Shown here in pieces: positions 11,364-14,519 of a stretch of 64,000 bases of DNA. Origin of the DNA: Phormidesmis priestleyi Ana (GTDB taxonomy: Bacteria; Cyanobacteriota; Cyanobacteriia; Phormidesmidales; Phormidesmidaceae); contig LJZR01000009.1 in assembly GCA_001314865.1 (NCBI GenBank), positions 62,001 to 126,000 of the forward strand, given 5' to 3'. The notes beneath the pieces are model-generated. The model saw only the letters and a list, made by a program, of their open reading frames with translations. It was not told the DNA's origin and made no database searches. The translations under genes and the position numbers were made by a program. Position 1 is the first letter of the stretch; each line of letters starts with the position of its first letter.

Positions 11364-12128
11364 CTATAGCCGTTTGGTTAGCACTGTACCGTGGGTATCT
11401 GTCCCACAGCTGCTGAGGAGTCTATGCTCAGCAGCAAGTGCCTGAACGCGCTCTGTTTTAACTGGGCTTGGTCGCCAAACCTTAGGATTATCGTAGGCAT
11501 AGTAGGTTTCTACTCCGTCAATACCCAAGCGAGCCGCCGCTCTAATAAGGGTGATCTCATCGGTTCGGTAGCGCACGGGGTGGGCCAGTATCGCAATTCC
11601 ACCAGCCGCCTGGATAGCTTGAATAACTCGGTCGGCTTGACGATCTGTGCCCTTGGGCGCAGCCCCTTGCAAGTAGGGGGCCATGCCCTTATCGCTAGGC
11701 TTAAATGCGTAGCCTAAGATATGTACATCGGTATCTGCAAGGCTTGATGTGATCTCAACGCCTGCCCATAGTTTTGGTAGCGATTTTACGCTGCTTCCCT
11801 TTCCTTTTGCTTGGCGTTTGCGACTCCAGCTAGAAGGGTTGTGCCAGCGCCAGTCTTCCATCCACTGCTTCGCTTTACGGTAGCCTTGTATGTTGTGATG
11901 GTCGGTAATGGCCATGCCTTGTAGCCCAATCTCGACGGCTTGAGCCATTAGCTCTGCAGGGGTTAGTTTCCCGTCAGAGCAATTGGTATGCATGTGAAAG
12001 TTGTAGGTTTTCGGGCAGCTTTGCGCGTTTATATTCTGTAATACTTCTCTAAGTAGCAAAGAATCCTGCGTCGCCGTCCGATGGGTCTCTTTTTGCTCAG
12101 AGGCCCGATCAGCAGGATTAGCGGACAT
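11364..12128 (-). CDS. PHP-domain metal-dependent phosphoesterase
   Basis: 254 residues. The PHP metal ligands are all visible: NFHMHTNCSDGKLTPAEL (H-x-H and D), AITDHHNIQGY (DHH), the Glu of GVEI, LAHPVRY and CGTDTHG near the end. Related to the YciV/RNase AM-like branch of PHP phosphoesterases, which act on nucleotide or RNA 5' phosphates. The first 40 residues are an extra hydrophilic leader. The actual substrate cannot be read from sequence. Start ATG 12128 is the only in-frame ATG before the domain. Confidence 0.88.
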   Translation of the reverse strand: MSANPADRASEQKETHRTATQDSLLLREVLQNINAQSCPKTYNFHMHTNCSDGKLTPAELMAQAVEIGLQGMAITDHHNIQGYRKAKQWMEDWRWHNPSSWSRKRQAKGKGSSVKSLPKLWAGVEITSSLADTDVHILGYAFKPSDKGMAPYLQGAAPKGTDRQADRVIQAIQAAGGIAILAHPVRYRTDEITLIRAAARLGIDGVETYYAYDNPKVWRPSPVKTERVQALAAEHRLLSSCGTDTHGTVLTKRL

Positions 12129-12402
12129 GGCTGTATAGCACTTACCTTACGACTAGTCTACTATACCCAACCTGCTGGCACATGGGGGAGATTTGCTCAA
12201 TGTCAATGACCACAAACCTTGACCAACGCGATTTATAGACGGGATCTATGAACCGGTTTGTGAATGACTACTGAATTATTTGTAAGCTGACAAAGCTGAG
12301 ATAGAACCTTGAAATCATTAGCGATCGCTTATGGCGATTACTTATGGTGGCGGATGAGCAGGCGAGAAGTTTGAATAAGCGCAGGCAATAAGCGCAGCCC
12401 AG

Positions 12403-12621
12403 TTAATGAGCGTAATTAAATAGGGTGTCTAAATATATTCGGGATGGGGTGCGATCGCCCTGTTTATGACCATTTTGCAGCAAAAACAGTGACAGTGCGG
12501 CAGCATAAACGCGATCTTGATCCCAACTAGGATGCGTTTCAAGAAACTCCTTAAGAGACTCATGAAGTTCTTCAGGAATTTCTGCCAGGATGCTTACGGT
12601 TAATTGCATTGAGGAACTCAT
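12403..12621 (-). CDS. DUF2811 family small protein
   Basis: 72 residues. VSILAEIPEELHESLKEFLETHPSWDQDRVYAAALSLFLLQNG matches the cyanobacterial DUF2811 family, a short helical protein with a ribbon-helix-helix-like feel (beta strand followed by two helices). Function unknown. ATG 12621 is used; a second ATG four codons later is possible. It diverges from the 0.9 kb gene-free region holding the DnaA-box-like cluster. Confidence 0.83.
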   Translation of the reverse strand: MSSSMQLTVSILAEIPEELHESLKEFLETHPSWDQDRVYAAALSLFLLQNGHKQGDRTPSRIYLDTLFNYAH

Positions 12622-13538
12622 AGGTAGCCCTGCGCTTCCGGCAGGTAGTGACCTATTTTGCGCCCTTGAGGGTAGGGTTTGTCAATGATAAAAAAAACAG
12701 GTGCTGTCCTTTTTTATAGAATTTGAATAACGAAAAATAAAGGATTTCAAGGGTTTTTTGTTACATAACTTCATTTTGTAGAGATCGTTTCTCATGTTTT
12801 GGGTGGCTTCTCAGTGAAATCCCAGGAAATCCGTGAAGCTACTGGTATTGCGTAAAAACCTGTGGAAAACTATATCAAACCTGTGGAAAACTTTTGGGGA
12901 ATCGGTGGATAACCTGTGGAAAGCTTTGATGCAAGATTAAAAAACGAGCAAAATGCTTTTGCTAAGCAAAATGAATTTAATCGCTTTTTTGAGTTGCGTT
13001 TAGTAACGCTTACCGTTAAAGGCGATCTCTGGATCTTATGTTCTTCAATGGGTTGGCTGTATTTTGCGGTGGGTTTGGCGAGTTGATGGCGTGAATGCTC
13101 AATGCATTGGGTGAGCTCTCTGGTTTGATGTGGGTGCAAAAAAAGGCTTGCTTTTGTCTGCTCAGCAGAGATGAAAATTGAGCGAACTGACGATTCACTC
13201 CCTGGGGAAAACTCTTGGGGATCGCCTGATAGAAGTCGGGCTACCGCAGTTGGAATTGTCACTGCTGTGGCTATTGGTGTGAATAGTGATTGCTGTTGGC
13301 TTGCTTTTTAAGTGCTTTTGCCCAAGTGTTGTTACGGTATTTTGCAAAGTCATATGTGCCGGTTGCCGCTAGGTAGCGTTTTTGACAGCGGTTCTTTTAT
13401 GCCGTTGGCTGGTGCTGACTAGGGGCGCTTGGCAAGCGACATGGTTTTAGGGGCGCTGAAAGTTTCAAGGTCGCTTGAAGCTGGGATCGAAACTTGATAC
13501 GCTCATAACCCGTTGCATTGTATTGGGTGAATTTTAGG
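12622..13538. other. 0.9 kb gene-free region with AT-rich tract and DnaA-box-like cluster
   Basis: No credible gene. From 12686 to 12783 the sequence is strongly A/T-rich with homopolymer runs. From 12861 to 12923 four DnaA-box-like 9-mers lie on one strand, and a related module recurs at 13203. The flanking genes diverge from this region. This is the layout expected of a replication origin or another DnaA-bound locus, but neither dnaA nor dnaN is in the window. Confidence 0.5.
12861..12923 (-). promoter_or_regulatory. Cluster of four DnaA-box-like sites
   Basis: TGTGGAAAA at 12861-12869 and 12882-12890 are exact complements of TTTTCCACA, the cyanobacterial DnaA box. GGTGGATAA at 12904-12912 and TGTGGAAAG at 12915-12923 differ by one base from TGTGGATAA and TGTGGAAAA. 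A fifth one-mismatch copy, TGGGGAAAA, is at 13203-13211, followed as here by CT(T/C)TTGGGGA. All share orientation. Binding is inferred only. Confidence 0.6.
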
Positions 13539-14519
13539 ATGCAGTTTTACGCGCTTTGTCGTCGTTCCGTAATTTCTGGGTTGTGTGGCTTTGCATTTCT
13601 TTTTTTAGGGGGCTGTGGAGCTGTTGATTCGGGAGATGGCTCTTCTGAGGGTACAGATGCGGCGGCAGATACGGCGGCAGATGTCTCGACGGCTTCTGTA
13701 GAGCCGCTTTCAATTGGCGCGATCCCTGACCAAGACCCCGAAATGCTACAGCGGTTGTATAGCCGCTTGGTTGATTATTTGAGTGCTGAGCTGGGTGTGC
13801 CGGTTGAGTACGAACCGGTGACTGATTATGCGGCGGCAGTGACTGCGTTTAAGGTGGGAGACTTAGACTTGGTTTGGTTTGGCGGGCTTACGGGTGTGCA
13901 GGCTCGATTGCAGGTGCCGGGAGCACAGGCCATTGTTCAACGAGACATTGACGAAAGTTTTCACAGTATTTTCATTGCCAATACGGCTAGTGGCCTTGAG
14001 CCGATCGACGATATCTCTGGGCTCAAAAGCCTGATGGGTAAGACTTTTACCTTTGGTTCAGAGTCTTCAACCTCGGGGCGACTGATGCCTCAGTTCTTTT
14101 TAAAAGAAGCGGGTGTCGCGCTGACAGATTTTAAGGGTGAACCGGGTTTTTCGGCCTCGCACGATGCGACTTTAAAGCTGGTTGAGGCAGGTAGCTTTGA
14201 TGCGGGCGTGGTGAATGAGCAGGTGTGGCTAGATCGGGTTGCCGCAGGTGAGGTAGATGAGGGTAAGGTGCTGGCTATTTGGCAAACGCCCCCCTACTAC
14301 AATTATTACTGGCTAGTGAATGCCGATAAGCTGAATGCAGAATACGGCGAGGGGTTTACCGATAAAGTTCAGACTGCCTTGCTAAATTTGAATGCGAGCG
14401 ATCCTCAACAGGCGGAGATTTTGGAGCTGTTTGGGGCTGAGAAGTTTATTGAAACTGAGAACGACAACTACGCTGAGATAGAGGCGATAGGTCGTGAGAT
14501 TGGCAAGATTAATGAGTGA
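13539..14519 (+). CDS. phnD: Phosphate/phosphonate-type ABC transporter substrate-binding lipoprotein
   Basis: 326 residues from ATG 13539 (a TTG at 13518 is the alternative). The N terminus is a lipoprotein signal ending in the lipobox LGGC, then a Ser/Asp/Ala-rich linker. The body matches the PhnD family: SIGAIPDQDPEMLQRLYSRLVDYLSAELG near the start, DLVWFGGLTGVQAR, FTFGSESSTSGRLMPQFF and ASHDATLKLVEAGSFDAGVVNEQVW. It would sit on the periplasmic side and deliver an oxyanion such as phosphonate or phosphite to PhnE. First gene of a phnD-phnC-phnE set. No C-P lyase or phosphite dehydrogenase follows, so the ligand is open. Confidence 0.9.
   Translation: MQFYALCRRSVISGLCGFAFLFLGGCGAVDSGDGSSEGTDAAADTAADVSTASVEPLSIGAIPDQDPEMLQRLYSRLVDYLSAELGVPVEYEPVTDYAAAVTAFKVGDLDLVWFGGLTGVQARLQVPGAQAIVQRDIDESFHSIFIANTASGLEPIDDISGLKSLMGKTFTFGSESSTSGRLMPQFFLKEAGVALTDFKGEPGFSASHDATLKLVEAGSFDAGVVNEQVWLDRVAAGEVDEGKVLAIWQTPPYYNYYWLVNADKLNAEYGEGFTDKVQTALLNLNASDPQQAEILELFGAEKFIETENDNYAEIEAIGREIGKINE

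What the first reader, a model, noticed from the sequence alone, without database searches (positions are those of the whole stretch)
12622..13538. Candidate replication origin or DnaA-bound locus without dnaA/dnaN
The sequence shows two exact TTTTCCACA-type 9-mers and two one-mismatch copies within 63 bases, all in one orientation, beside an AT-rich tract (12686-12783), in a 0.9 kb spacer between divergent genes, with a related module repeated at 13203. TTTTCCACA is the DnaA box reported for cyanobacteria. Most described cyanobacterial origins lie near dnaN, which is absent here, so this is either an origin in an unusual context, a DnaA-titrating site, or chance.
Basis: partly seen in the sequence, partly recalled or inferred. 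Interest (0 to 1): 0.7.

Follow-up and report, generated by a model that had tools for sequence, protein, structure and literature searches.

The report
DnaA-box promoter of DUF2811 gene
The suspected replication origin looks instead like a widely conserved cyanobacterial control region, built from binding sites for the replication starter protein DnaA, in front of a small gene of unknown function that is missing or broken in most sampled lineages that have lost DnaA.

Summary
The boxes are real, but the site is not the origin. The genome's only dnaA lies beside dnaN on another contig, with seven exact TTTTCCACA boxes in 186 bp between them.

The array belongs to the short minus-strand gene 12403-12621, DUF2811 (PF10929). 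This genome has two DUF2811 genes; both carry an upstream array on the gene's strand.

- Arrays: 133 of 161 DUF2811 loci sampled from 135 Cyanobacteriia genomes have helically phased same-strand boxes; reversed-motif control 0 of 140.
- Geometry: where a conserved TTGACA motif is found, the last box lies a median 183 bp upstream (IQR 182-183); TTGACA-to-gene distance varies.
- Co-loss: all 13 sampled class genomes lacking DUF2811 also lack dnaA; all 167 dnaA-positive ones keep it.
- Box sequence: in one family both the array and the dnaN-side cluster use TTATCCACA.

Best reading: DnaA binds the array and controls the DUF2811 promoter. DnaA binding, promoter and DUF2811's function are inferred. 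Full-text searches for DUF2811 and PF10929 found no paper.

The parts
12403..12621 (-). DUF2811 (PF10929) gene, 72 aa; the gene the array belongs to
   Evidence: ORF; Pfam E 9.8e-27, 93.5 bits against a cut-off of 26.6
12861..12869 (-). DnaA box TTTTCCACA, nearest to the gene
12882..12890 (-). DnaA box TTTTCCACA
12904..12912 (-). DnaA-box-like TTATCCACC (one mismatch to TTATCCACA, two to TTTTCCACA)
12915..12923 (-). DnaA-box-like CTTTCCACA (one mismatch)
12816..12825 (-). position of the inverted or degenerate box about 44 bp after the last forward box in relatives (window: CTGGGATTT); weak here
   Evidence: 20 inverted boxes at +43 to +45; CTGGGGATTTT block in the f18 leader alignment; coordinates; equivalence by eye
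12754..12777 (-). conserved GTAACAAAAAA block; HLR1-like (RpaB site): second half TATGTAAC intact, first half degenerate here (3 mismatches in all, counted by eye)
   Evidence: HLR1 consensus from PMC11633204 (passages)
12675..12687 (-). conserved CATTGACAAACCC; TTGACA at 12680-12685 is the putative -35 element, 184 bp from the last box here (median 183)
12653..12661 (-). putative -10 region (GCAAAATAG), at the place of the GCACAATGATG of relatives
   Evidence: inference
12686..12783 (.).
   Evidence: 73.5% AT
13203..13211 (-). single TTTTCCCCA; also found 607-650 bp upstream of the DUF2811 match in all six same-genus relatives
13518..14519 (+). divergent phosphonate-type ABC transporter binding protein; neighbour (other DUF2811 loci read here have other neighbours)
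   Evidence: other neighbours

Best explanation
The feature is the control region of the DUF2811 gene. DnaA binds a head-to-tail, helically phased array of boxes. From a fixed distance (about 183 bp) it regulates a TTGACA-type promoter that transcribes the small DUF2811 protein. Array, spacing and promoter form one module of about 250-300 bp that goes with the gene. DUF2811 therefore reports or acts on DnaA activity, much as DnaA-controlled sda does in Bacillus; an HLR1-like site inside the module suggests light or redox input as well. Shown by comparison: array, phasing, fixed spacing, co-loss with dnaA, shared box variant with the dnaN-side cluster. Inferred: DnaA binding in vivo, that TTGACA is the promoter, the direction of regulation, and what DUF2811 does.
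For: Own genome: both DUF2811 genes have the array. Sampled loci: 133 of 161 have a phased pair, 141 of 161 an exact box, and 125 of 135 genomes have one or the other. In the 114 of these genomes shown to have dnaA the figures are 97 and 107 of 120 loci and 105 genomes; the other 21 genomes were not tested for dnaA. In the first 140 loci phased pairs numbered 116 against 0 for the reversed motif. In named loci they numbered 76 of 78 against 0 of 78; 65 of the 78 are not in the first set, giving 63 of 65 against 0. Spacings peak at 11, 21-22, 32-33, 43-44, 54 and 65 bp. Box-to-TTGACA distance has median 183 and IQR 182-183, TTGACA-to-gene median 196 and IQR 152-224, in the 53 of 168 loci with the stricter motif. 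With any TTGACA, a box lies 180-186 bp before it in 90 of 162 loci, against 1 of 162 at 130-136 and 9 of 162 at 230-236. Co-loss in 186 class genomes: 167 with dnaA all have DUF2811; of 19 without, 13 lack it (Fisher p 8e-16) and 2 more hold copies with stops. Control DUF2555 is found in 18 of the 19. In f28 the DUF2811 array and one other cluster use TTATCCACA in both genomes; in G111 that cluster was shown to lie just upstream of dnaN. Five of 7 plasmid copies examined have boxes.
Against: No binding or expression data could be run. Ten of 135 genomes show neither an exact box nor a phased pair in 700 bp. Marine-picocyanobacteria-like f2 has a phased pair in only 5 of 21 loci. The 180-186 bp rule has no instance in 8 of 33 families: f2 (0 of 21), f17 (0 of 12), f29 (0 of 4), f34 (0 of 3), f11 and f28 (0 of 2 each), f5 and f12 (0 of 1 each), and holds in only 21 of 38 loci of the window's own family. 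Outliers with the stricter motif lie at 75, 78, 152, 152, 175, 187 and 188 bp. Four dnaA-less genomes keep an intact DUF2811: two have no box, one keeps a single exact box, and one (G206) keeps an exact box and two one-mismatch copies, still with a phased pair, so neither gene nor boxes always vanish with dnaA. The promoter scan did not call this promoter: the putative -10 is weak and the hexamer spacing long. Fisher's test ignores shared ancestry.
Confidence: 0.82

Rival explanations
1. DnaA titration or reactivation site (datA-, DARS- or DBC-like): the array's job is to hold or recharge DnaA, and DUF2811 is only its neighbour or a by-product.
For: Phased clusters of DnaA boxes outside oriC in most sampled lineages. 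Further multi-box clusters exist: 15 of 55 clusters (found in 35 of 52 genomes) are not at DUF2811, dnaA or a located dnaN; dnaN was located in 19 of the 52 genomes only.
Against: Spacing to the promoter-like TTGACA is fixed to about 1 bp. Arrays accompany DUF2811 in different surroundings, in paralogues and on plasmids. Position relative to oriC varies from 0.04 to 0.96 of the half-chromosome in 10 genomes (contigs taken as circular, origin taken as the dnaA- or dnaN-side site). DUF2811 itself tends to disappear with dnaA, which a mere neighbour need not do.
Confidence: 0.12
2. Replication origin in an unusual context, or an auxiliary origin.
For: DnaA boxes beside an AT-rich tract. Some cyanobacteria replicate from several sites (PMC7198777, abstract and discussion).
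Against: Larger two-orientation cluster between dnaN and dnaA in the same genome. In the 52 genomes searched 18 of 55 clusters sit at dnaA or dnaN, apart from the 22 at DUF2811. Boxes here are in one orientation only. The GTAGTAGTAGTAG run (DnaA-trio-like, motif recalled) seen at this genome's oriC was not seen beside the window array (by eye).
Confidence: 0.03
3. Chance or a repeat artefact.
For: TTTTCCACA is not over-represented genome-wide (80 sites against 78 for the reversed motif). Two other clusters in this genome look incidental: one inside a coding frame (C112) and one 15-bp tandem repeat (C127).
Against: At least one phased pair in 32 of 33 families, with reversed-motif phased controls at zero in 140 and in 78 loci.
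Confidence: 0.01

Closest known systems
Bacillus subtilis sda and other DnaA-regulated promoters
   Same: DnaA binds the promoter region of a small-protein gene and regulates it (passages of PMC8203912; discussion of PMC7198777).
   Different: DUF2811 matches no other Pfam family at a meaningful score and was found almost only in the class Cyanobacteriia in the sample searched. Here the array is phased and set a fixed distance from a conserved promoter-like element, and the gene tends to be lost together with dnaA. DnaA dependence is untested here.
Cyanobacterial oriC (dnaN/dnaA-linked TTTTCCACA cluster)
   Same: Same 9-mer (PMC4674748, passages and section 12), and the same TTATCCACA variant in family f28.
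   Different: Not beside dnaA or dnaN, fewer boxes, one orientation, linked to DUF2811 and a promoter-like element.
E. coli datA/DARS and B. subtilis DnaA-box clusters (recalled)
   Same: Conserved non-oriC DnaA-box clusters.
   Different: No fixed chromosomal position (10 genomes); spacing fixed relative to a promoter-like element; accompanies one gene. IHF/Fis-type sites not tested.
HLR1 (RpaB-binding) elements
   Same: Matches (G/T)TTACA(T/A)(T/A)NN(G/T)TTACA(T/A)(T/A) on the opposite strand with at most 3 mismatches in 69 of 84 modules, 65 of these 69 at 91-92 bp before TTGACA (consensus from PMC11633204, passages). Controls: 9 of 84 on the other strand, 2 of 84 shuffled.
   Different: Only 34 of 84 have at most 2 mismatches; the 84 are dominated by two families (34 from f18, 19 from f1); the window's copy has one intact half. 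RpaB binding untested.

Membership tests
Chromosomal replication origin (oriC) | Adjacent to dnaN and/or dnaA (usual in cyanobacteria) | tested here: not met
   Single dnaA on contig C128 beside dnaN; the window site is on C103 between DUF2811 and phnD
Chromosomal replication origin (oriC) | Largest DnaA-box cluster of the genome | tested here: not met
   Seven exact boxes at C128:62024-62209 against two at the window site
Chromosomal replication origin (oriC) | GC-skew minimum | not testable with these tools
Window skew changes sign more than once; cyanobacterial skew is often irregular (PMC7198777)
DnaA-regulated promoter (sda-like) | DnaA-box cluster in the upstream region, conserved with the gene | tested here: met
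   133 of 161 loci with phased boxes; 63 of 65 further named loci
DnaA-regulated promoter (sda-like) | Array placed at fixed geometry to a promoter | tested here: met
   Median 183 bp (IQR 182-183) to TTGACA in loci with the motif; at least one locus in 25 of 33 families, none in 8. That TTGACA is the real promoter is inferred
DnaA-regulated promoter (sda-like) | DnaA binds in vivo and expression depends on DnaA | not testable with these tools
   Needs ChIP and expression data
datA/DARS/DBC titration site | Cluster of DnaA boxes outside oriC | tested here: met
datA/DARS/DBC titration site | Conserved position relative to oriC (a recalled feature) | tested here: not met
   0.04 to 0.96 of the half-chromosome in 10 genomes (approximate)
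datA/DARS/DBC titration site | Titrates or recharges DnaA | not testable with these tools
   Needs an in vivo assay
DUF2811 (PF10929) | Pfam curated cut-off | tested here: met
   93.5 bits against 26.6
Ribbon-helix-helix DNA-binding proteins | Profile or fold match to RHH | tested here: inconclusive
   Helices at 17-29, 35-50 and 58-68 in a low-confidence single-chain model (pLDDT 69); best PDB fold hit E 2.6; no RHH Pfam family listed at E up to 5

The most novel reading that the evidence does not exclude
DUF2811 is a previously unrecognised cyanobacterial component of the DnaA pathway, either a DnaA-controlled checkpoint or effector protein or a regulator of DnaA itself. Control of its promoter would be the conserved reason why cyanobacteria that no longer need DnaA for replication, such as many Nostocaceae, still keep dnaA.
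Probability: 0.45. Interest if true: 0.88.

Novelty: new variant of a known kind. Interest (0 to 1): 0.8.

Why it matters
The function of DnaA in cyanobacteria that have dnaA but do not need it for replication 'remains unclear' (PMC7198777, discussion read). This work names a conserved candidate target with testable geometry, and a small protein whose presence follows dnaA across several losses. In family f18 boxes are kept at 36 of 36 loci examined (35 with a phased pair). The finding also gives a caution for origin prediction: DnaA-box clusters in cyanobacteria are not only origins.

Tried and rejected
Origin hypothesis: rejected by the dnaN-dnaA cluster. Known RNA in the spacer: no Rfam match at E up to 1 in 12100-13700. 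Phage origin of DUF2811: no PHROGs hit for three members and no phage record at E 1e-5. RHH fold for DUF2811: suspected from the sequence pattern, not supported by profile or fold searches. The sigma-70 scan did not call the conserved TTGACA promoter. In f28 I first looked for an origin beside dnaA and found no TTATCCACA cluster there; it is beside dnaN. The first orientation of minus-strand loci was wrong and was corrected. The last control failed on a script error and was not repeated; the control that ran gave 0 of 107.

Rows left out: four of 56 DUF2811 matches (two pieces in G004, one in G022, one in G005 lying 519 bp from a contig end); one locus with 400 bp upstream; two named loci with under 500 bp upstream. 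The match list is capped; from it I examined 29 new loci returned with the call and 60 chosen for spread over families, and searches added 6 (dnaA-less) and 21. The 168 loci are therefore a chosen sample. Of the 15 unassigned clusters, 12 were read. For plasmids 7 of 13 hit records were examined.

Full report
What was reported and what is there. The finding describes a DnaA-box cluster in a 0.9-kb spacer. The boxes are present: exact TTTTCCACA on the minus strand at 12861 and 12882, TTATCCACC at 12904, CTTTCCACA at 12915, and TTTTCCCCA at 13203. Across the window such boxes are not enriched (16 matches against 17.5 expected). The cluster is still unusual: 1 of 1000 Markov-1 sequences had a same-strand triplet within 70 bp.

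It is not the origin. The genome (5.93 Mb, 136 contigs) has 80 exact TTTTCCACA sites, against 78 for the reversed motif. Its single dnaA lies on contig C128, with dnaN on the other side of a two-orientation cluster of seven exact boxes in 186 bp (both genes confirmed by Pfam).

The minus-strand ORF 12403-12621 is a DUF2811 protein (PF10929, E 9.8e-27). The genome has two DUF2811 genes, here and on contig C30, and both have an array upstream on the gene's own strand.

Conservation. DUF2811 was found in 28 of 28 genomes of the relatives search, the window's own included, and in 173 of 186 genomes of the class within a phylum sample of 386; outside the class there was one marginal hit (E 9.7e-4). 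I examined the 700 bp upstream of 161 DUF2811 loci from 135 genomes in 33 families, a chosen sample. Of these, 141 have an exact same-strand box and 133 a phased pair. For 114 of the 135 genomes dnaA was shown: 107 and 97 of 120 loci there; the other 21, relatives, were not tested for dnaA and give 34 and 36 of 41. In the first 140 loci the mean was 2.99 boxes on the gene's strand, 0.43 on the other, and 0.18 and 0.09 for the reversed motif; phased pairs numbered 116 against 0, and two or more boxes 121 against 3. Named genomes gave 76 of 78 phased against 0 of 78; 13 of these loci repeat the first set, and the remaining 65 give 63 against 0. They were the best matches to the query, so closer relatives. 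Spacings peak at 11, 21-22, 32-33, 43-44, 54 and 65 bp, and 20 inverted boxes lie 43-45 bp after the last exact forward one. Five of seven plasmid-borne DUF2811 genes examined also have boxes.

Where such pairs occur. In 52 genomes the pattern TTTTCCMCA-N11-13-TTTTCCMCA gave 78 hits in 35 genomes, against 1 for the reversed control. They form 55 clusters: 22 at DUF2811, 14 at dnaA, 4 at dnaN and 15 elsewhere; dnaN was located in 19 genomes only, so some of the 15 may also be dnaN-linked. Twelve of the 15 were read. Three look like origins of f29 genomes; a fourth (G202), of the same genus as two of them, was not read.

A rigid promoter-like module. In the 53 of 168 loci with TTGACA[AG][AGT]CC within 1200 bp, the last exact box lies a median 183 bp upstream of it (IQR 182-183; three loci have no exact box). 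The TTGACA-to-gene distance varies far more (median 196, IQR 152-224). Outliers are at 75 and 78 (f2), 152, 152 and 175 (f29), 187 (f12), 188 (f18), and 167 and 171 in two dnaA-less genomes. The motif is absent from the downstream control (0 of 107). With any TTGACA, 90 of 162 loci have a box 180-186 bp before it, against 1 of 162 at 130-136 and 9 of 162 at 230-236; 25 of 33 families have at least one such locus, and f2, f17, f29, f34, f28, f11, f5 and f12 have none. Restricted to genomes shown to have dnaA it is 65 of 120 loci and 19 of 26 families; in the 65 further named loci it is 46, against 1 and 12 at the control distances. Between array and TTGACA lie conserved blocks, including GTAACAAAAA and TTTCGTAA. 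An HLR1-like sequence (at most 3 mismatches in 69 of 84 modules; 9 of 84 on the other strand, 2 of 84 shuffled) sits nearly always 91-92 bp before TTGACA (consensus from passages of PMC11633204). In the window the box-to-TTGACA distance is 184 bp.

Link to DnaA. Two comparisons point to DnaA as the binder. First, in both f28 genomes the DUF2811 array has TTATCCACA in place of TTTTCCACA, and the search for such pairs found only one other cluster per genome (control 0); in G111 that cluster lies directly upstream of dnaN. It was not checked in G263, and which variant is older is unknown. Second, of 186 class genomes, 167 have dnaA (PF08299) and all of these have DUF2811. Nineteen lack dnaA; 13 of them lack DUF2811 (Fisher p 8e-16, uncorrected for ancestry) and two more hold copies with stop codons. 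The losses of both fall in f23, f32, f21/g67, f18/g34 and f18/g35. A control family of similar size, DUF2555, is found in 18 of the 19. Of the four dnaA-less genomes with an intact DUF2811, two have no box; one keeps a single exact box (171 bp from TTGACA); one keeps an exact box (167 bp) and two one-mismatch copies, still including a phased pair. In the four f17/g27 genomes examined, which have dnaA, no exact box is left within 700 bp and one or two TTTTCCCCA copies remain. TTTTCCACA as the cyanobacterial DnaA box, and cooperative binding of DnaA domain IV to pairs of boxes, are reported in PMC4674748 (passages and section 12 read).

Mechanism and limits. I infer that DnaA binds the array and regulates the DUF2811 promoter at a fixed distance. 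Activation or repression cannot be told. Titration remains possible, but the promoter-fixed geometry and the variable chromosomal position weigh against it as the main role. DUF2811's own function is unknown; its fold prediction is weak and fold and profile searches found nothing convincing.

Literature. No paper in the held library holds the words DUF2811 or PF10929. Other searches, whose lists are capped, showed no paper describing DnaA-box arrays upstream of a cyanobacterial gene other than at oriC, judged from titles, abstract beginnings and the passages read. [quoted passage not shown] PMC8203912 and PMC11633204 were seen as passages only.

Noticed in passing
L155 2928-2978, L156 3078-3127, L157 2845-2895: A further three-box array (20-22 bp spacing) in f21 and f17 genomes, near a cation-efflux-family gene (L155, L156; PF01545) and a small protein without a Pfam match (L155, L157; a similar ORF by eye in L156); a candidate second DnaA target.
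   Followed up: partly
L161 2592-2641, L163 2728-2777: Three-box array downstream of a GMP-synthase gene (PF00958) in two different families (f16, f19).
   Followed up: partly
L164 2579-2796, L165 2923-3132, L166 2581-2790: Large two-orientation box clusters away from dnaA and dnaN in f29 genomes, probably oriC; PMC4674748 reports an origin flanked by genes of unknown function in Thermosynechococcus elongatus.
   Followed up: partly
L249, L253, L254 (upstream of DUF2811): In f17/g27 genomes no exact box is left at DUF2811 and one TTTTCCCCA remains in each of these three, although dnaA is present; this may fit the very low or undetected DnaA reported for Synechocystis 6803 (that g27 is related is a guess).
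   Followed up: partly
L002 5788-6009: An unassigned cluster in the window's own genome near a contig end: two exact boxes 12 bp apart plus TTTTCCCCA in both orientations.
   Followed up: no
L005 5873-5911: Exact box three times at a 15-bp period inside near-identical TGTGGAAAAGGTTGA-type units; looks like a short tandem repeat rather than a DnaA array.
   Followed up: no
L006 8999-9011: Run GTAGTAGTAGTAG next to the oriC boxes, resembling the DnaA-trio element (motif recalled); not seen at the DUF2811 array (by eye).
   Followed up: no
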